Source: Dehalococcoidia bacterium
GTDB lineage: Bacteria; Chloroflexota; Dehalococcoidia; Dehalococcoidales; BS750m-G39
Direction of reading: 5' to 3'
Assembly (NCBI GenBank): GCA_030608005.1
Contig: JAUWIX010000009.1
Coordinates: 1 to 40,888 of the forward strand
DNA: 40,888 bases
Shown here: one piece after another, positions 1-7,568 of the stretch
Layout of the letters: every line of letters starts with the position of its first letter
Position numbering within the stretch: position 1 is the stretch's first letter
Made by a program: the position numbers and the translations under genes
The notes under the pieces: model-generated
Told to the model about the DNA's origin: nothing
The model's database searches: none
Seen by the model: only the letters and a program-made list of their open reading frames with translations

Positions 1-18
1 GGCACTGCCAAGGCGGCA

Positions 19-42
19 ACTCCGGCATGTATAAACCGGAGT
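19..42. other. Short inverted repeat near window edge
   Basis: Perfect 7-bp arms (ACTCCGG at 19-25, CCGGAGT at 36-42) enclose a 10-nt A/T-rich loop. It could be a transcript-end hairpin for a gene left of the window, but no T-run follows on either strand, so a terminator call is weak. Confidence 0.3.
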
Positions 43-112
43 ACTATTATTAAGTCAAGAATTTGAAATGAATTAAGGAATTAGGTCATCTTGCTGCCCG
101 TATCTATTCAGC

Positions 113-415
113 TCACTCCGGTGGTTGTTTTTTGTTCTTGATCTTTTTCGCCTCTCGATCCTCGGTTGTTGCCTTCTCCCTGGCTAAATAGGCTTCCCTT
201 CTTGCCTGTTCTCTAGCTAATTGATCTATTTCCTCTTTGACACGCTTCTCTGATCGCTTGGTTTTCCTTTCTTTCTGGGCCTCTTCAATTGCCTGTTCTC
301 TAGCCAAATAGGCTTTCTTTCTCGTCTGCTCCTTGGCTAGCCGCTCAGCTTCCTCTGCAGCGCGCTTTTCCGCTCGCTTGGCCTCTTTGAGTGACTGTTC
401 TTCTTGGTTTCCCAT
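113..415 (-). CDS. Lys/Glu-rich coiled-coil protein with internal 40-residue duplication
   Basis: A 100-residue, highly charged protein of unknown function, made almost entirely of K, R, E, A and Q, so it should be one long helix or coiled coil. It has no signal peptide or membrane segment. Residues 13-52 and 53-91 are two copies of one ~40-residue unit: both begin KRxEKR and share a block reading LA(K/R)EQ followed by AYLARE. The 120-bp repeat is also visible in the DNA. The ATG at 415 is preceded by an AGAGGT-like ribosome site, and an extended -10 element lies upstream. No partner gene is adjacent. A low-complexity helical protein like this could act in filament, nucleoid or envelope scaffolding, but the sequence does not decide. 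Confidence 0.6.
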   Translation of the reverse strand: MGNQEEQSLKEAKRAEKRAAEEAERLAKEQTRKKAYLAREQAIEEAQKERKTKRSEKRVKEEIDQLAREQARREAYLAREKATTEDREAKKIKNKKQPPE

Positions 416-764
416 CGTTCTCTACCTCTAAACATTGGATAATCATGAAACTGGCCGTAAATCACTATGTTGCAGCAACTCGCCACCTCGATTTCGATAG
501 TGGCCTGGGATATATGCAAACTCCGCACTAGACTAATCATGCAAATTATACCAGAAAACACAGACCAAAATATGTATTAAGATGGTCATAGATCTTCGGT
601 GGCAAGAGAAATCCAGGCCAGCCTACCAGCTTATGGTGATGCCAGTACTTACTTGCACAGTCCGTCATTTTGTGCAAATTGAGAAAGCCTACTAATTTAG
701 TATGCAGAAATAGGCCACTCATCAACCCCAAACAAGATATGGGCCGCTCCAGAAAGTGAGAAGG
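416..764. other. Gene-free stretch
   Basis: No convincing gene. It holds the leader and probable extended -10 promoter of the coiled-coil gene (545-553) and the region behind the VWA gene stop. A 61-codon minus-strand frame at 546-731 has no ribosome site and no recognisable motif. Confidence 0.4.
545..553 (-). promoter_or_regulatory. Extended -10 promoter of coiled-coil gene
   Basis: On the minus strand the sequence reads TGG followed by a consensus TATAAT, i.e. an extended -10 element, with no good -35 box at 16-18 bp. Transcription would start near 538, giving a leader of about 120 nt before the ATG at 415. Confidence 0.4.
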
Positions 765-1949
765 TTACTTCTTCACAATCAATTTTTTCACCGCTTGTCC
801 CAGACCATCGAGGGTAAGTTCGAACATCGGGAAAAGCTTTCCAATCATTTGAACAGTGGGGTGAGGCCAGATGCTTGGGTTGTCAGGATTCAGCCAAACG
901 CTGTGAGTGAAATGTTCGGTAATCCTCTTGAGCCAAACTATCCCTGGAGTTTCATTACGCTCGTAGTAATTGATTGCCCCATACCTCTCCATCAGCTCCC
1001 AGGGAGACATTCTAGCATCTCCCACCAGTAGCAATTTATAGTCGGGCTCCATGGTGCGTAGCAGATAGTCAGTGCTTATTGCCTCTTGTCTCTCAATATC
1101 TTGATAGAGGTTATCATATATACAGTTATGGAAATAGAAGTATTGGAAATCCTTGAAATGACTGCTGGAGTGAGCTGCTGAAAAGAGTTGACTGCACAAT
1201 AGAGCAAAGGGTTCCATCGACCCGCCGACATCCATTAGCAGGAGCACTTTAACCGCATTCTTTCTGCTTCGTGTCCACATTAGCTCAATCTCGCCGGCAT
1301 TCTTAGCAGTAGCGTCGATAGTTTCCTCTAGGTCTAACTCATCCTCGGGGCCAATTCGGCTGAGCTCTCGTAACCCTCTTAGAGCCATCTTAATCTGGCG
1401 GACATCAAGGGTCAGGTCACTGCGATAGTTTCGGAATCTCCTCTCTTGGGCAATTTGTATGGCATGTCTGCCTCTTGATTCGCCACCGATTCTGATGCCA
1501 GCGGGATGATACCCAGAATGCCCAAAAGGAGAGGTACCTCCTCGTCCAATCCAATAACCACCCCCATTATGCTGTTCAGTCTGCTCTTTAAGCCTCTTTT
1601 CGAATTCCTTAATTAGTTCTTCAAAATCCATCCTATCAAGTAAGGCTTGCTCCTCTTCAGTAAGAGTCATCCGGTTAAGGGGGCCTTTAAGCCATTCCAA
1701 TATTTGTTCTGAAATCTCGGCCGGGGCTTCTATTCCCTTGAAATACTCTTGGAAGGCAACATCATAATGGTCATAGTAGGCTTCACTTTTAACCAGTATT
1801 GCTCTTGCCAGATAATAGAATTCATCCAGGTTGGAGATGCAACCCTTGGCAAGAGCCTCCATAAGGGTCATCCACTCTGTAGTTGAAACTGGCACCTTCC
1901 TTTTCCTGAGGGTGTAGAAAAAGTCAGTAAACATATCTATCTTCGCCAT
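765..1949 (-). CDS. VWA-domain protein, CoxE-like
   Basis: A 394-residue cytosolic protein of the CoxE-like von Willebrand A family. These proteins work with MoxR-type ATPases, which remodel or load metal into client enzymes; the client here is unknown. The first ~120 residues are helical, residues 128-165 are Gly-rich, and the VWA domain starts near 234. The metal site reads D240-V-G-G-S244: the usual DxSxS site with Gly in place of the middle Ser, a variant I associate with this family. D311 lies in a later conserved loop (VGDARMSPWEL). Its ATG at 1949 lies inside the end of the MoxR gene (13-bp overlap), so the two are probably translationally coupled. There is no signal peptide or transmembrane segment. 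Confidence 0.85.
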   Translation of the reverse strand: MAKIDMFTDFFYTLRKRKVPVSTTEWMTLMEALAKGCISNLDEFYYLARAILVKSEAYYDHYDVAFQEYFKGIEAPAEISEQILEWLKGPLNRMTLTEEEQALLDRMDFEELIKEFEKRLKEQTEQHNGGGYWIGRGGTSPFGHSGYHPAGIRIGGESRGRHAIQIAQERRFRNYRSDLTLDVRQIKMALRGLRELSRIGPEDELDLEETIDATAKNAGEIELMWTRSRKNAVKVLLLMDVGGSMEPFALLCSQLFSAAHSSSHFKDFQYFYFHNCIYDNLYQDIERQEAISTDYLLRTMEPDYKLLLVGDARMSPWELMERYGAINYYERNETPGIVWLKRITEHFTHSVWLNPDNPSIWPHPTVQMIGKLFPMFELTLDGLGQAVKKLIVKK

Positions 1950-2800
1950 CGGGTAAAGAAAGTATCACCAATCCTAGTCATATGATTATTTACAAAGTAA
2001 TCGTAATCAGTCTCTTTCTTGAGCAGAGTGCCAATAAAGGGGATTTCTGAAGATATTTTCTCGTGGGCTACTCCTCCAGCGATGAGAGCCCGAATCCAGT
2101 CTATCAGTTCGCTGGTCGAGGGCTTCTTTCTGAACTCATCAATCTCCCTCAATGAGTAAAAAGCCTTCAGGGCTTCATGGAGAAGGCTATTCTTAATATC
2201 AGGGAAGTGCACCCTTACGATTTCTTCCATCAGATTAGCGTCAGGGAATTCGATGTAGTGAAATATACACCGACGTAAGAAAGCGTCAGGGAGCTCTTTT
2301 TCGGCATTGCTGGTGATGACTGCTATCGGCCAGTGAATGGCGGTGATGGTCTCATTGGTCTCCGGGATGTAGAAGCTCATTTCATCCAATTCATTGAGGA
2401 GGTCGTTAGGAAACTCAATATCGGCCTTATCTATCTCGTCGATGAGAAGCACCACTTGCTCAGGAGAAGCGAAGGCTTGTCCTAATTTACCCAGCTTGAT
2501 GTACTGTTTGATGTCAGAAACATCTCTATCACCAAAACGGCTGTCGTTAAGCCTCTGCACAGTATCATAGACATATAGTCCTTCTTGAGCCTTGGTGGTT
2601 GATTTGATGTTCCATATAATCAGCTTTTTCCGTAACCCGTGAGCGATGCTGTGAGCCAGTAGTGTTTTTCCTGTCCCTGGCTCTCCCCTGATTAATAACG
2701 GTCTTCCTAGGGCTATACTTACATTAACCGCATTCCTCAAGGGTTCAGAAGTAACATAATCTGACGAGCCTTTGAATTGGTCAAAACCATCATTATTCAC
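1937..2800 (-). CDS. MoxR-family AAA+ ATPase
   Basis: A 287-residue single-domain AAA+ ATPase of the MoxR/CoxD type. Walker A is GEPGTGKT at residues 39-46, Walker B is VVLLIDEID at about 116-124, sensor-1 Asn165 lies in VITSN, and the paired arginines R176-R177 in AFLRRC are candidate arginine fingers. The family acts as chaperone-like ATPases that mature metalloenzymes or complexes together with VWA partners; the overlapping downstream gene is such a partner. The GTG start at 2800 has an AGGAGGT ribosome site about 10 nt upstream, and a strong promoter lies at 2908-2936. No client enzyme gene (CO dehydrogenase, methanol dehydrogenase or similar) is seen nearby. Confidence 0.9.
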   Translation of the reverse strand: MNNDGFDQFKGSSDYVTSEPLRNAVNVSIALGRPLLIRGEPGTGKTLLAHSIAHGLRKKLIIWNIKSTTKAQEGLYVYDTVQRLNDSRFGDRDVSDIKQYIKLGKLGQAFASPEQVVLLIDEIDKADIEFPNDLLNELDEMSFYIPETNETITAIHWPIAVITSNAEKELPDAFLRRCIFHYIEFPDANLMEEIVRVHFPDIKNSLLHEALKAFYSLREIDEFRKKPSTSELIDWIRALIAGGVAHEKISSEIPFIGTLLKKETDYDYFVNNHMTRIGDTFFTRWRR

Positions 2801-3236: not shown

Positions 3237-3256
3237 TTTATCATTTAATTGATAAA
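3237..3256. promoter_or_regulatory. Palindrome overlapping the regulator start
   Basis: TTTATCA (3237-3243) and TGATAAA (3250-3256) form a 7-bp inverted repeat centred in A/T-rich DNA, ending one base before the ATG at 3258. Its position and symmetry suggest an operator for self-repression by the winged-helix protein encoded just downstream. It also covers the alternative TTG start at 3249. Confidence 0.45.
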
Positions 3257-3257
3257 A

Positions 3258-3485
3258 ATGCGTAAAGAGATTTTAGCGACCAAACTTGATGTCCTTGAGT
3301 TCATAATGAAGAGGAAGCTTGCTTGCCCGTATGAACTTGCTGAAAAATTTGGCTTCAGCCCCAGATATGTGCCGGTACTTCTGAATCGCCTTAAAAGGGC
3401 AGGGCTTGTAATAAACATGACAAGAGGGCGCTGGGAATTAACTGAAGAAGGCTATAAGAGATTGAGATACTATGGCAGGAGGTAA
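3258..3485 (+). CDS. Small winged-helix DNA-binding protein
   Basis: A 75-residue protein that is essentially one winged helix-turn-helix domain. Helices around residues 5-35 include CPYELAEKFGFS, a typical turn plus recognition-helix entry. A basic helix follows (RYVPVLLNRLKRAGL), then a strand-wing segment (GRWELTEEGYKRL), the pattern of MarR/ArsR-like and archaeal-style single-domain regulators. I chose the ATG at 3258; a TTG nine bases upstream would add three residues. Neither has a convincing ribosome site. The next frame overlaps its end by 14 bp. The target is unknown; the palindrome at its start suggests autoregulation. Confidence 0.6.
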   Translation: MRKEILATKLDVLEFIMKRKLACPYELAEKFGFSPRYVPVLLNRLKRAGLVINMTRGRWELTEEGYKRLRYYGRR

Positions 3486-3663
3486 AGAGGGCAGACTGAA
3501 AATAGAAGCTGGGGAAGTTGGGCAAGTTAAAGCACAAAGACGAAATGTCTATTTTCGAAGATTGATTGGGCGAGCTATCGAGGACTATGTTGAGGCCTCA
3601 CCAGCTCCGGAAATCATAGGGCTAGATAAGATTTTCGCATTTACTCTTCGGCTGCCTTGTTGA
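3472..3663 (+). CDS. Small hypothetical protein overlapping the regulator gene
   Basis: A 63-residue frame whose ATG lies inside the last codons of the winged-helix gene (14-bp overlap), with no classical ribosome site. It is basic in the first 40 residues, then acidic (AIEDYVEASPAPEIIG). No known domain is recognised. The overlap suggests coupled translation with the regulator. The last ~8 residues (AFTLRLPC) are doubtful because the opposite strand carries a competing small frame there. It may be real, or the intact part of a truncated gene. Confidence 0.35.
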   Translation: MAGGKEGRLKIEAGEVGQVKAQRRNVYFRRLIGRAIEDYVEASPAPEIIGLDKIFAFTLRLPC

Positions 3664-3789
3664 GCGCTTCCCTTAGGAGCTTCATCCCAAATCCCGTTCC
3701 ACATAGCTTGTCATCTCCCTTCTTATCAAATCTATTGGGTTGTTCAAGCTTAGCGAGCTAATCTCTACCAAAACTCTACGGTGCACCAT
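3641..3789 (-). pseudogene. Possible frameshifted small gene
   Basis: On the minus strand an ATG at 3789 opens a 35-codon frame (MVHRRVLVEISSL...) ending in TGA at 3682. The stop overlaps a second ATG at 3685 that opens a 14-codon frame, MKLLREALNKAAEE, ending at 3641. Read together with a one-base slip they give a ~49-residue amphipathic helical protein. Either this is one decayed or frameshifted gene, or two overlapping tiny frames. No homologue is recognised. It conflicts with the tail of the plus-strand frame ending at 3663. Confidence 0.25.
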
Positions 3790-4338
3790 TATCTAGCTCT
3801 CTCTCAAAGCAAAGGGTCGCCCTATGCATAGTTGCCGTTGTGGAGATTTACAGGCTTACTAGTAATCTAACCCAAGTATTTTAGGCTCTAGGAGAATTTT
3901 GATAGCAATCAATAAGAGCCCAATCTAGGGTTTGTTATCATTAGCTTTGCTTTCGTTATATAAGATAGCCGGATTATTTCATGGGCAGTTCAGTATCTTT
4001 AGCGTTTAATAAAATTGGGGGCACCCCACAGAGGCATGCTCAAAAGCCGAAGGCGAGGGCGCGCATCAGCTTAAAATCATCAAATATTCTCCTTACGGCG
4101 AACAAATGCCGGTTTGGTAGTAAAATAGGGCTGGAAAAAGGCTGAGATTTTCCTGTTCCAACTAGTTGAAACCCACTATTTTCCTACGGGGGAAAGCCTG
4201 ACAAGTAAGCATCGGTTCAATTAAAAGGACACTTAGGTGGATATTCACTAGCACTCACGGGAATTTGTGGAAATGAAGATGACTAACCCCTTTTCCTTGA
4301 GGTCGTGGAGCTTCCAGTAGGCACTCCAAAGGGTATAA
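3790..4338. other. Gene-free stretch containing the right inverted repeat
   Basis: No supportable gene on either strand. It contains the right 19-bp inverted repeat (4010-4028). A TAAGGAG on the minus strand near 4095 leads only into a frame of a few codons. Confidence 0.4.
4010..4028 (-). repeat. Right 19-bp inverted repeat
   Basis: Inverted copy of 3037-3055 (18 of 19 positions). Its outer half reads GGGGGCACCCCA on the plus strand. Confidence 0.6.
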
Positions 4339-4806
4339 TTGAATGAATTTCGCAGGAAAGAAAGCATTGAACATGTCACTCGAGCCTTCCCCTGCAAGAG
4401 AGAACTCGCCGAAGCTCTTGTCATGAAATTTGAGGGGAAATATGGACTTGAGAAAGGATTAGATGCCCTTGCAAGGCTTCTGGAGTATGTAGATTGGAAA
4501 CTCGAACAGGATAGTAGTATTGAAGACATTGAGCCTCTATTTGGGGAATGCGTGAACATCATTTTAGGCAATGAGGATGAAAAAGATAGAATAAGGGAAA
4601 CTATGGTCAGGAGAAGCGAAGGGATATTAAAGCCTGAGGATGATTTGCACGACTTTTTCAATGAATGGCTTAACAGCGAGGATGAAGAAGAGTTTGTAGA
4701 AGGGGTTTTGAAGCTTAATGGTGCCCTTCTGCGGCTTGCAGATGAGCGGTATATACCGTTTGAGGATGTGTTCGGCGAAGACAGCTCATCTGTGGAGGTA
4801 AAATAA
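4339..4806 (+). CDS. Hypothetical acidic helical protein
   Basis: A 155-residue soluble protein rich in Glu, Asp and Leu, predicted mostly alpha-helical, with no motif I recognise. Composition is clearly protein-like (for example GLEKGLDALARLLEYVDW near residues 36-53), while the reverse-strand frame here is a Ser-rich shadow. The start is uncertain: the only full-length initiator is a TTG at 4339 directly after an in-frame stop and with no ribosome site, and the first internal Met is residue 29 (4423). The 5' end may therefore be truncated. A perfect ribosome site for another gene lies 11 bp after its stop, suggesting it once headed an operon. Confidence 0.5.
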   Translation: MNEFRRKESIEHVTRAFPCKRELAEALVMKFEGKYGLEKGLDALARLLEYVDWKLEQDSSIEDIEPLFGECVNIILGNEDEKDRIRETMVRRSEGILKPEDDLHDFFNEWLNSEDEEEFVEGVLKLNGALLRLADERYIPFEDVFGEDSSSVEVK

Positions 4807-4829
4807 GGGCTACAAAGAAGGAGGAAATA

Positions 4830-4967
4830 ATGGCTATTTCATCAGATGAGGCAATAACAAAGCTCCTCATCTTCCCCTTTCCGAGCCGGAGCAATCCACA
4901 AAATCTTGCCCCCCCCCTCGAAAAGGAGAACCAGCTTTTTGCCATCTTTGTCCCAGGTGAGGCCTAA
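4830..4967 (+). pseudogene. Truncated gene start with perfect ribosome site
   Basis: AAGGAGG at 4818-4824 sits 5 nt before an ATG at 4830. The first dozen codons (MAISSDEAITKLL) look like a genuine N-terminus. After about 4870 the frame becomes Pro/Ser-rich, antisense to a plausible minus-strand reading frame, and stops at 4967 after 45 residues. I read this as a real gene beginning whose body was lost at a rearrangement junction near 4865-4875, next to the recombinase region. It belongs in an operon with the preceding 155-residue protein gene. Confidence 0.4.
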
Positions 4968-5114
4968 AAACTTCTTACTCTTCACGCTCTCTGCAGGCAA
5001 GTCCTTTTCCTGCTCCACAGCATTTAACTTCTCAGTCTCCTTAGAGTCTCCTACGGTGATAAGACTCTCCAATTTCAGCCTATGTCGGGACCAAGGACAC
5101 CAGCTCTGAACCAC
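4842..5114 (-). CDS. Hypothetical protein, probably a fragment
   Basis: A 90-codon frame from a GTG at 5114 with no ribosome site. Residues ~25-75 have ordinary soluble-protein composition (Lys/Glu-rich, then FLGLTWDKDGKKLVLLFEGG, which looks like two beta strands). The last ten residues are antisense to the truncated plus-strand gene at 4830, so the natural C-terminus is probably missing. It lies downstream of the recombinase gene on the same strand and could be element cargo. Function unknown. Confidence 0.3.
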   Translation of the reverse strand: MVQSWCPWSRHRLKLESLITVGDSKETEKLNAVEQEKDLPAESVKSKKFLGLTWDKDGKKLVLLFEGGGKILWIAPARKGEDEELCYCLI

Positions 5115-5299: not shown

Positions 5300-6319
5300 T
5301 CATTTTTCTCTCCTTTGCCACCCCCAGCCATTATTGCTCTGGCGGTGATAGTTATTCCCCCGCAAAAGGCTATCCAGGGGAGAAAACTGCTGGTGCCCGG
5401 CCAATGCCTTCTTGACATCGATATACCTTGAGTATTTTAAGACCATAGCCAGGGTGGAATGCCCCAAGAGCAGCCGCAGGGTGTTTAAGTCGCCCCCATT
5501 CTCAAGGTAGCGGGTGGCAAAGTAGTGGCGGAAGCAGTGGGGACCGCCCCCACCCCTGATGCCAGCACGCCTTTTTAAGCGCTGAATCATTATCTGGATG
5601 GAGTACGCCGACAGGGGCTGGCCGGCAGAGGTTTGCCACAGCCTGTCACCCCCTGGGGGCCTAATCTCAAGGTAGTGCCTAAGTGCCTTTCTTGCTTCCC
5701 CGCTTATGGGCACCACCCTCATTTTAGCCCCCTTGCCTACAACCTGGATCTGCTGAAGCCTGGGGTCGAGATCGGAGAGGCGGATGTCAGCCAGCTCCGC
5801 CAGCCTCAGCCCGGTATCAATAAACAGGGAGATGATGGTCTTATTGCGCAGGCCGAGGAAGTGAAAGCCGAATCTGGCATCAGCCTCGCACTGCTGGAGC
5901 ATGGCCTGCACCTCCTCGTCGGAGTAGGGCTTGACCTCCTTATAGTGGGGGGAGGGCGGCCTGAATCGGAGGCAGGGGTTGCCCTCGATATACTCCTCAG
6001 CTTCAGCCCAGTTAAAGAAGCCCTTTACCACCACCCCGTAGTGGTGGACGGTGGCTGGGGAAGCCAGCCTGTACCACGACCGCGGCGACTCTGGCCAGCG
6101 GTACTTTTCTCTGGCCACATAGTCCAGGAAGTCACGGATATGCTCCCGGGTGATGAGGCTGAGGTCTGTCGGCCAGCCCTGAGTTCGAGCGTACCACAAA
6201 AACTTGGCCAGGATGTTATTGTAGTACTCCCGGCTCCTTGGGGCCAGGCCGGGGCGGGTGGTGAATCGAGGGATGAGTTCCTCCAGAGTAGGGTTTTTGG
6301 GTTTTAGTTGGGTTACCAT
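5300..6319 (-). CDS. Tyrosine recombinase / integrase (XerC/D-like)
   Basis: A 339-residue site-specific recombinase. Residues ~10-118 form the SAM-like core-binding domain; residues ~130-310 form the catalytic domain. All active-site residues are present: Arg172 (in TGLRLAEL), Lys196 (in VVGKGAKMR), His261-x-x-Arg264 (HCFRHYFAT), His287 (LLGHST) and Tyr296, spaced nine residues after His287 as in XerD. The C-terminal tail after 310 is short and basic. The ATG at 6319 has no obvious ribosome site. Just upstream are direct and inverted repeats and then half of a tRNA-Val gene cut at the anticodon loop, a usual target for this class. It is therefore more likely an element integrase than the housekeeping Xer. 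Confidence 0.93.
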   Translation of the reverse strand: MVTQLKPKNPTLEELIPRFTTRPGLAPRSREYYNNILAKFLWYARTQGWPTDLSLITREHIRDFLDYVAREKYRWPESPRSWYRLASPATVHHYGVVVKGFFNWAEAEEYIEGNPCLRFRPPSPHYKEVKPYSDEEVQAMLQQCEADARFGFHFLGLRNKTIISLFIDTGLRLAELADIRLSDLDPRLQQIQVVGKGAKMRVVPISGEARKALRHYLEIRPPGGDRLWQTSAGQPLSAYSIQIMIQRLKRRAGIRGGGGPHCFRHYFATRYLENGGDLNTLRLLLGHSTLAMVLKYSRYIDVKKALAGHQQFSPLDSLLRGNNYHRQSNNGWGWQRREK

Positions 6320-6344
6320 TATTCATTTTTGCCGTCCGCCGTCT

Positions 6345-6392
6345 TTGACTATTTTTACACTTTTTTGACTTTTTGTGATACTCTTCTTGACT
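6345..6392. repeat. Three spaced TTGACT direct repeats
   Basis: TTGACT occurs at 6345-6350, 6365-6370 and 6387-6392, spaced 20 and 22 bp, each followed by a T-rich run. The ~21-bp period places them on one face of the helix. They lie just upstream of the recombinase start and are candidate arm-type integrase sites or repressor sites. Confidence 0.45.
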
Positions 6393-6445
6393 TCTTTTGT
6401 GTTTTTCCTATTCGATTTCTGCCAATCAACTAGCAAAAGTGTAAA
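6354..6445. repeat. 11-bp inverted repeat reaching into the cut tRNA
   Basis: TTTACACTTTT (6354-6364) and AAAAGTGTAAA (6435-6445) are perfect inverted copies 70 bp apart. The right copy contains the tRNA-Val anticodon loop. This resembles paired recombinase-binding arms or a remnant of the attachment core. Confidence 0.5.
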
Positions 6446-6477
6446 GCAGATGCTCTAACCAACTGAGCTAACCGCCC
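6439..6477 (-). pseudogene. 5' half of tRNA-Val(UAC), truncated at the anticodon loop
   Basis: Reads as a canonical tRNA 5' half: acceptor GGGCGGT, T8-A9, D arm GCTC...GAGC, anticodon-stem strand TCTGC and loop TTTACAC with anticodon TAC (6441-6443). After the loop the expected GCAGA strand, variable loop, T arm and acceptor 3' strand are missing and replaced by A/T-rich DNA leading to the recombinase gene. It lies 5 bp after the tRNA-Arg CCA end, so it was the third gene of a Leu-Arg-Val cluster. No 3' half is visible in the window. Confidence 0.8.
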
Positions 6478-6482
6478 CTGAG

Positions 6483-6559
6483 TGGCGCGCTTGGCGGGGC
6501 TTGAACCCACGACCTCAGCCTCCGCAGGGCTGCGCTCTATCCTACTGAGCTACAAGCGC
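6483..6559 (-). tRNA. tRNA-Arg(GCG)
   Basis: Complete cloverleaf with encoded CCA. The acceptor GCGCTTG/CAAGCGC pairs perfectly. The D arm is GCTC/GAGC, the anticodon stem CAGCC/GGCTG has loop CTGCGGA (anticodon GCG, reads CGC), and the T arm is GTGGG-TTCAAGC-CCCGC. It sits 11 bp after tRNA-Leu and is probably co-transcribed with it. Confidence 0.95.
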
Positions 6560-6570
6560 CGAAGTAAAAA

Positions 6571-6656
6571 TGGTGCCGAAGGGGAGATTTGAACTCCCAT
6601 GCCCTTACGGACACTACGCCCTGAACGTAGCGCGTCTGCCATTCCGCCACTTCGGC
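6571..6656 (-). tRNA. tRNA-Leu(CAG)
   Basis: Complete class II tRNA with encoded CCA. The acceptor is GCCGAAG/CTTCGGC, the anticodon stem CTACG/CGTAG has loop TTCAGGG (anticodon CAG, reads CTG), the long variable arm is typical of Leu, and the T arm is GGGAG-TTCAAAT-CTCCC. Its own promoter lies immediately upstream. Confidence 0.96.
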
Positions 6657-6673: not shown

Positions 6674-6702
6674 ATTATACCTACCTCACAATTAGGCGTC
6701 AA
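6674..6702 (-). promoter_or_regulatory. Promoter of the tRNA cluster
   Basis: Minus-strand TTGACG (6697-6702), 17-bp spacer, perfect TATAAT (6674-6679). The start site near 6667 lies about 11 nt before the mature tRNA-Leu 5' end. It sits between the rpsI stop and the tRNAs, so these need not depend on the ribosomal operon. Confidence 0.75.
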
Positions 6703-7130: not shown

Positions 7131-7568
7131 CTAATTCTCAGCCCCCTTTGTGCTAGCCCCGGTCTGAGCCAGGTGAGGATGACTCTCACCAGCATAGACC
7201 TTGAGCTTTTTCATTATGCTAGCCCCCAGACGATTGTGGGGCAACATGCCCTTGACTGCATGTTCAATCACCCGGGTGGGATGAGTCTGCATCATTCTCT
7301 CCAGACTGATACTTTTAAGCCCCCCGGGGTATCCTGAATGTCTATAATAGAGCTTCTGCTTAGCCTTATTGCCAGTAACTCTAACTTTCTCTGCATTGAT
7401 AATGACGACAAAATCGCCGGTATCCAGATTGCGGCTGAATATTGGCTTATGCTTGCCCATAAGCAGGCTAGCCACCTGAGTAGCCAGCTTGCCCAGAACC
7501 TTACCCGAAGCATCAATCACATGCCACTGACGCTCAATATCAGAGGCTTTGGTGCTATAGGTTTTCAT
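7131..7568 (-). CDS. rplM: 50S ribosomal protein L13
   Basis: A 145-residue L13, an early 23S rRNA-binding assembly protein. Recognisable blocks are [16 protein letters not shown] near residue 15, the MGKHKP segment, [14 protein letters not shown], and [18 protein letters not shown] near the C-terminus. The ATG at 7568 overlaps the truA TAA by one base (TAATG), so translation is probably coupled. Slightly longer than average owing to a short polar tail. Confidence 0.96.

What the first reader, a model, noticed from the sequence alone, without database searches (positions are those of the whole stretch)
6320..6482. tRNA-Val(UAC) gene cut at the anticodon loop beside a complete tyrosine recombinase
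The 5' half (6439-6477) is canonical through position 38 of the tRNA, then stops. Anticodon-loop crossover is a known target class for tyrosine integrases, but such elements normally carry a matching 3' half so the tRNA is rebuilt at the junction next to the native 5' half. Here it is not, so either the element destroys its target, a later deletion removed the 3' half, or the gene is split by a long insertion. The cell then needs another tRNA for GUA codons.
Basis: partly seen in the sequence, partly recalled or inferred. Interest (0 to 1): 0.65.

Follow-up and report, generated by a model that had tools for sequence, protein, structure and literature searches.

The report
Integrase element splitting a tRNA-Val gene
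A mobile DNA element has inserted into the middle of a valine tRNA gene and left only its front half next to the element's integrase; the same clade of integrases does this to other essential tRNA genes in related cold-seep bacteria, so a working copy must be supplied elsewhere, which makes this an uncommon but known style of integration.

Summary
Window 6439-6477 (- strand) is the 5' half of tRNA-Val(UAC), third gene of a Leu(CAG)-Arg(GCG)-Val(UAC) trio found with an intact Val across the order. It is identical to a relative's gene through C38 and then stops. A complete tyrosine recombinase starts 120 bp further on. The 3' half is nowhere in the held genome (1.12 Mb, 86.8% complete), nor is any other Val(UAC) gene. 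Among 156 genomes of the order only this one has the cut Val.

It is not a one-off. All five integrases of a 100/100-supported clade lack a rebuilt tRNA: four sit beside 5' halves cut in the anticodon loop or just past it (Val, Phe, Met, Gly), and the fifth sits in a protein gene at a sequence resembling the Gly target. Their sister clade sits beside rebuilt tRNAs with a 3' half in attP. So this is an attachment junction, not decay or an artefact.

The far end is not assembled. Best reading: attP carries a tRNA 5' half and the gene is rebuilt at the far end (Islander lists 159 such 5'-fragment islands among 3,919). Main rival: tRNA-dependent integration, where the element brings a whole replacement tRNA. 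Both kinds are known; interest is moderate.

The parts
6439..6477 (-). native 5' half of tRNA-Val(UAC), G1 to C38, displaced fragment at the attachment junction
   Evidence: 100% identical to G002's gene up to C38; trio synteny across the order
6483..6559 (-). tRNA-Arg(GCG), intact host gene upstream of the cut tRNA
   Evidence: ARAGORN and Rfam
6571..6656 (-). tRNA-Leu(CAG), intact host gene, first of the trio
   Evidence: ARAGORN and Rfam
6674..6702 (-). sigma-70-like promoter of the trio (TTGACG-17-TATAAT, 11 of 12); no terminator-like site before the integrase, so it may also drive int
   Evidence: consensus scan; function inferred
6320..6438 (-). element end / attP-derived arm between the anticodon-loop crossover and int; first ~16 nt variable among relatives, rest related
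   Evidence: comparison of six junctions; boundary inferred from the end of tRNA identity
5300..6319 (-). tyrosine recombinase (integrase), 339 aa, complete catalytic set
   Evidence: Pfam PF00589, PHROG 1 integrase, alignment A1
3249..5114 (.). probable element interior: winged-helix regulator ORF 3249-3485 (+), ORF 4339-4806 (+) and ORF 4842-5114 (-) without confident family
   Evidence: ORFs; regulator matches PHROG 2440; no DNA match in 30 relatives; membership inferred
765..2800 (-). CoxE-type VWA protein and MoxR-type AAA ATPase genes; island cargo or host genes, not settled
   Evidence: Pfam; present at other loci of family members, two copies in G005

Best explanation
The junction at window 6438/6439 is one attachment junction (attL) of an integrated element. 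Its tyrosine integrase exchanged strands in the anticodon loop of the host tRNA-Val(UAC) gene, leaving the native 5' half (with the native promoter) on the integrase side and pushing the native 3' half to the far end, which is not in this assembly. Shown: native 5' half, exact cut, int, absence of a 3' half at this junction, and the same arrangement at other tRNAs beside the same integrase clade. Inferred: the element's attP carries a copy of the tRNA's 5' half instead of the usual 3' half, so that the joined far end (element 5' half + native 3' half) is a working tRNA. The int gene then lies downstream of the host tRNA promoter.
For: Native 5' half in conserved synteny. All five members of the integrase clade (support 100/100) lack a rebuilt tRNA: Val (window), Phe after rpoC in G031, Met(CAU) in G043 after the same transporter gene that precedes an intact Met gene in G005, and Gly(UCC) in G005. 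The fifth, in G060, lies in the 3' end of a DUF72 gene at AGTCCTGCCT, like the Gly target AGTCCCTGCCT. G005 holds a 5' half of tRNA-Gly after hisF (contig C18) and a second, slightly different 5' half at contig C13 embedded in mobile DNA (HTH regulator, second integrase) directly in front of the same arm and int: what an attP or tandem copy carrying a 5' half would look like. A phage contig (L217) has exactly a tRNA-Val(UAC) 5' half, cut after C38, between its integrase and other ORFs, with recombination and replication genes and an excisionase nearby: an attP with a 5' half at the same tRNA and the same base. In G031 a 30-nt 5' piece of tRNA-Gly(UCC) lies just upstream of the complete gene. 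Islander lists 159 islands with a displaced 5' fragment (PMC4383910). In a complete relative, G070, a related integrase also sits at the displaced-fragment side with the intact tRNA 12.5 kb away.
Against: No rebuilt tRNA is found in any of the four genomes with a cut tRNA (Val in G000, Phe in G031, Met in G043, Gly(UCC) in G005), although they are 69-93% complete. The C13 5' half has no close promoter. If the C13 half were part of an element-borne whole tRNA hit by a second element, the same contig would fit the rival. G031's contig runs 26 kb beyond int without any tRNA. The window contig's left end overlaps no other contig, so the far end cannot be followed.
Confidence: 0.5

Rival explanations
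1. tRNA-dependent integration: attP shares only a short core with the anticodon loop, integration destroys the host tRNA, and the element carries a whole tRNA of the same isotype that keeps the cell alive.
For: This system is proven for actinobacteriophages with the same anatomy: anticodon-loop attB, ~10 bp core, no reconstruction, close relatives that do reconstruct, different tRNA targets within a phage group, secondary sites in protein genes (PMC10865867). The sister clade here reconstructs with a 3' half in attP while this clade does not. No free 5' half was found in G060, where the element sits outside a tRNA.
Against: No cognate whole tRNA is found in the assembled parts of any element or in the held genomes. 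It needs both the native 3' half and the replacement tRNA to be missing from four assemblies. The 5' half in mobile context at G005:C13 needs an extra step.
Confidence: 0.3
2. Broken remnant: the element integrated in an ordinary way, and later deletion or integrase-driven rearrangement removed the 3' half; the functional tRNA lies elsewhere by duplication.
For: Host-like genes (VWA/MoxR pair) lie only 2.5-4 kb beyond int in the window, and metabolic genes lie beyond int in G031; no 3' half between them. The N-terminal part of int in G031 versus G043 shows dN about equal to dS.
Against: Four different tRNAs in four genomes are cut in or next to the anticodon loop beside one clade, while sister integrases sit beside rebuilt tRNAs; independent deletions would not share an endpoint. 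The int ORFs are intact, and G005 versus G060 shows purifying selection (dN 0.16, dS 0.59).
Confidence: 0.14
3. Assembly chimera that joins a tRNA 5' half to an unrelated integrase contig.
For: The tRNA 5' half shares a 34-nt stretch at 94% identity with tRNA-Val(GAC), and mobile DNA often misassembles.
Against: The join lies beyond that repeat, contigs of this assembly overlap by up to 127 nt at their ends, pointing to long k-mers, and the same anatomy recurs in independent MAGs.
Confidence: 0.03
4. A real split tRNA gene whose halves are transcribed apart and joined, as in some archaea.
For: The cut lies in the anticodon loop, where archaeal split tRNAs are also divided (own knowledge), and no intact copy is seen for four essential tRNAs.
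Against: No 3' half is found anywhere in the held genome; I know of no trans-spliced tRNA in bacteria; integrase linkage explains the cut.
Confidence: 0.01

Closest known systems
Genomic islands with a displaced 5' tDNA fragment (Islander class; 159 of 3,919 islands, PMC4383910)
   Same: tyrosine integrase, tRNA target, anticodon-centred crossover, displaced 5' fragment upstream
   Different: the regenerated tRNA and the far end are not visible here, so the defining pair (fragment plus whole tRNA) is incomplete
tRNA-dependent lysogeny of actinobacteriophages (Fionnbharth, LeBron, Gaia; PMC10865867)
   Same: anticodon-loop attB, junction without a rebuilt tRNA, related integrases that do rebuild, several tRNA isotypes as targets, secondary sites in protein genes
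   Different: host is a Dehalococcoidia relative, element type unknown, cognate tRNA on the element not found
Ordinary 3'-half tRNA islands of the same order (e.g. G070 tRNA-Pro(GGG), 16.5 kb; G050 attP with a tRNA-Pro 3' half)
   Same: related integrases (35-42% identity), int downstream of the tRNA in the same orientation, anticodon-loop crossover
   Different: their attP carries the 3' half and the tRNA is rebuilt beside int

Membership tests
5'-fragment tRNA island (Islander type) | integrase gene next to or within the interval | tested here: met
   integrase 5300-6319, PF00589
5'-fragment tRNA island (Islander type) | displaced tRNA 5' fragment at one end | tested here: met
   6439-6477, 100% identity through C38
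5'-fragment tRNA island (Islander type) | complete regenerated tRNA at the other end, same orientation | tested here: inconclusive
   no tRNA-Val(UAC) in the 86.8% complete genome; far end not assembled
5'-fragment tRNA island (Islander type) | element attP carries the 5' half | tested here: inconclusive
   only G005:C13 resembles this, with a 5' half in mobile context before the same arm and int
tRNA-dependent lysogeny | tyrosine integrase with attB in a host tRNA gene | tested here: met
tRNA-dependent lysogeny | tRNA not reconstructed at the attachment junctions | tested here: inconclusive
   not reconstructed at this junction; other junction not assembled
tRNA-dependent lysogeny | element encodes a tRNA of the disrupted isotype | tested here: inconclusive
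   none in 6.4 kb of window nor in the held genome; element incomplete
tRNA-dependent lysogeny | element is a temperate phage whose lysogeny needs that tRNA | not testable with these tools
   no structural phage genes seen in the assembled part; a genetic test would be needed

The most novel reading that the evidence does not exclude
A clade of integrases in cold-seep Dehalococcoidia uses tRNA-dependent integration: it cuts single, essential tRNA genes of several isotypes at the anticodon loop and keeps the host alive with an element-borne replacement tRNA, extending the mechanism well beyond actinobacteriophages and possibly addicting the host to the element.
Probability: 0.28. Interest if true: 0.55.

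Novelty: new member of a known kind. Interest (0 to 1): 0.37.

Why it matters
It shows one integrase clade switching away from the standard 3'-half rebuild while still hitting essential, apparently single-copy tRNAs. Either outcome is instructive: a 5'-half attP means the element must also bring a promoter for a core tRNA, and tRNA-dependent integration would make the host depend on the element. For annotation, it explains apparently missing core tRNAs in MAGs and shows that a half tRNA beside an integrase marks an island end.

Tried and rejected
Integrase searches of the genome and viral contig collections with the single protein: no relatives; with the alignment, only the MAGs already found plus remote hits. 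Phages and plasmids: nothing at or above 60% identity, best listed places about 26-37%. Junction patterns in viral contigs: none for the window junction, the Gly cut or the int leader; the Val cut pattern gave 36 hits, of which one (L217) is a real 5' half. An inverted-repeat test around the anticodon loop for a mirrored integrase half-site was not significant overall (Fisher p = 0.16; only G043 alone, p = 0.004). Contig-end overlaps did not extend the window contig. The tRNA-like call at G005:C13 5697 was rejected as a rebuilt or cognate tRNA: no Rfam gathering hit, best sub-threshold match tRNA-Sec at 26.7 bits. Contig C13 is not circular. Failed inputs.

Full report
Observation. The window is the whole of contig C19 (40,888 bases) of a 1.12 Mb, 38-contig MAG, 86.8% complete; the order-level relatives that carry a named record are CSMAG bins (two of three titled Dehalococcoidia or Dehalococcoidales), which I take to be cold-seep metagenomes from the name. 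On the - strand, tRNA-Leu(CAG) and tRNA-Arg(GCG) are intact. Next comes GGGCGGTTAGCTCAGTTGGTTAGAGCATCTGCTTTACAC, 100% identical to tRNA-Val(UAC) of relative G002 through C38, and then unrelated sequence where G002 continues GCAGGGGGTC. The Leu-Arg-Val trio with an intact Val is present in nearly every relative whose locus could be read, and the sequence after the tRNA's CCA differs in all five family members compared: an integration hot spot. Only this genome among 156 has the cut Val. No 3' half and no other Val(UAC) gene is in the held assembly. GUA is 20% of valine codons in 15 housekeeping genes, so a working copy must exist outside the assembly.

The integrase. ORF 5300-6319 is a complete tyrosine recombinase. 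A search of the order found four close relatives. Reading their upstream DNA gave the main result. G031 int (63-65%) sits beside a tRNA-Phe(GAA) 5' half after rpoC. G043 int sits beside a tRNA-Met(CAU) 5' half after a transporter gene that also precedes the intact Met gene of G005. G005 int sits beside a tRNA-Gly(UCC) 5' half. G060 int lies in the 3' end of a DUF72 gene at a sequence resembling the Gly target. The identity ends in the anticodon loop (Val, Gly) or a few bases into the 3' side of the anticodon stem (Phe, Met). None is followed by a 3' half. G005 also has a second cut tRNA-Gly, after hisF (named by eye), with a related arm (77% over 99 nt) and then the contig end. A tree of 34 integrases puts the five together with 100/100 support. 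Their sister group of 12 sits beside complete tRNAs (Pro, Val, Met, Gly) or, in G050, carries the tRNA-Pro 3' half alone, i.e. an ordinary attP. In the complete genome G070 the ordinary arrangement is seen with both ends: intact tRNA-Pro by int and a 50-nt 3' fragment 16.5 kb away. Also in G070, a different integrase clade has int at the displaced-fragment side and the intact tRNA-Val(CAC) 12.5 kb away. So int beside a displaced fragment, with the good copy at the other end, is real in this order.

Which mechanism. Intact copies of the cut tRNAs were not found in G031 (Phe), G005 (Gly UCC), G043 (Met) or G000 (Val). All four are incomplete, and G000 has only 33 tRNAs above the cut-off, so tRNA genes are missing there more often than the completeness figure suggests. 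Reading one: attP carries the 5' half. For it: the second Gly 5' half of G005 lies in mobile DNA (HTH regulator, another integrase) and differs from the copy after hisF in the D-loop region; phage contig L217 carries a tRNA-Val(UAC) 5' half cut after the same C38 next to its integrase; G031 has a 30-nt 5' piece of tRNA-Gly just upstream of a complete tRNA-Gly; and Islander counts 159 of 3,919 islands with 5' fragments. Reading two: tRNA-dependent integration as described for actinobacteriophages, which predicts everything seen at this junction and also the secondary site in a protein gene, but needs a cognate tRNA on the element that was not found. I give 0.50 and 0.30. A deletion remnant is weaker because the same cut is shared by four tRNAs.

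Promoter. The trio has a strong promoter-like site and no terminator-like site before int, and the G031, G043 and G005-C18 halves show promoter-like sequence just upstream when read by eye. Int may therefore be read from the host tRNA promoter after integration (inference).

Boundary. Where the element ends on the left is not known. The VWA/MoxR pair at 765-2800 occurs elsewhere in family members, twice in G005 and near tRNA-Ser(GCT) in G005 and G008, so it may be cargo. Window 6-628 has an 84% match in G010. The contig's left end has no overlap with any other contig end.

Verdict. A real, well-placed attachment junction of a mobile element of a clade that does not rebuild its tRNA at the integrase side; new as a clade, but of a kind already known. 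Membership in either known kind is left open because the far junction is missing.

Noticed in passing
L217 (IMGVR_UViG_3300034280_000763) 5725-5763, - strand: Phage contig with a tRNA-Val(UAC) 5' half cut after C38 between its integrase and a 217-aa ORF; it looks like an attP that carries a 5' half.
   Followed up: partly
L166 (G031:C121), 1020-1297, - strand: A 30-nt 5' piece of tRNA-Gly(UCC), then a 61-aa ORF, then the complete tRNA-Gly(UCC): looks like a small 5'-fragment insertion.
   Followed up: partly
L100 and L103, ~16 nt between the tRNA cut and GCTAAAATTAGG: G031 and G043 elements are about 90% identical from int through the arm, but the 16 nt next to the tRNA cut are unrelated, as if swapped as a unit with the change of target from Phe to Met.
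   Followed up: partly
L101 (G005:C13) 5697-5771: Odd tRNA-like sequence called Met(CAU) by ARAGORN, below Rfam gathering, best sub-threshold match tRNA-Sec.
   Followed up: partly
L194 (G060:C65) and L143 (G005:C21) near 7324: Two displaced tRNA-Met 3' halves: the first just before a dCTP-deaminase-like ORF (named by eye), the second downstream of the intact tRNA-Val(UAC) and an integrase remnant.
   Followed up: no
L047 (G027:C1): A run of 100 N starts inside the same tRNA-Val gene, so this locus was also hard to assemble in another genome.
   Followed up: no
L093 (G033) and L094 (G001): Integrases of another clade sit beside a reversed, displaced tRNA-Lys(UUU) 3' half with no 5' half.
   Followed up: no
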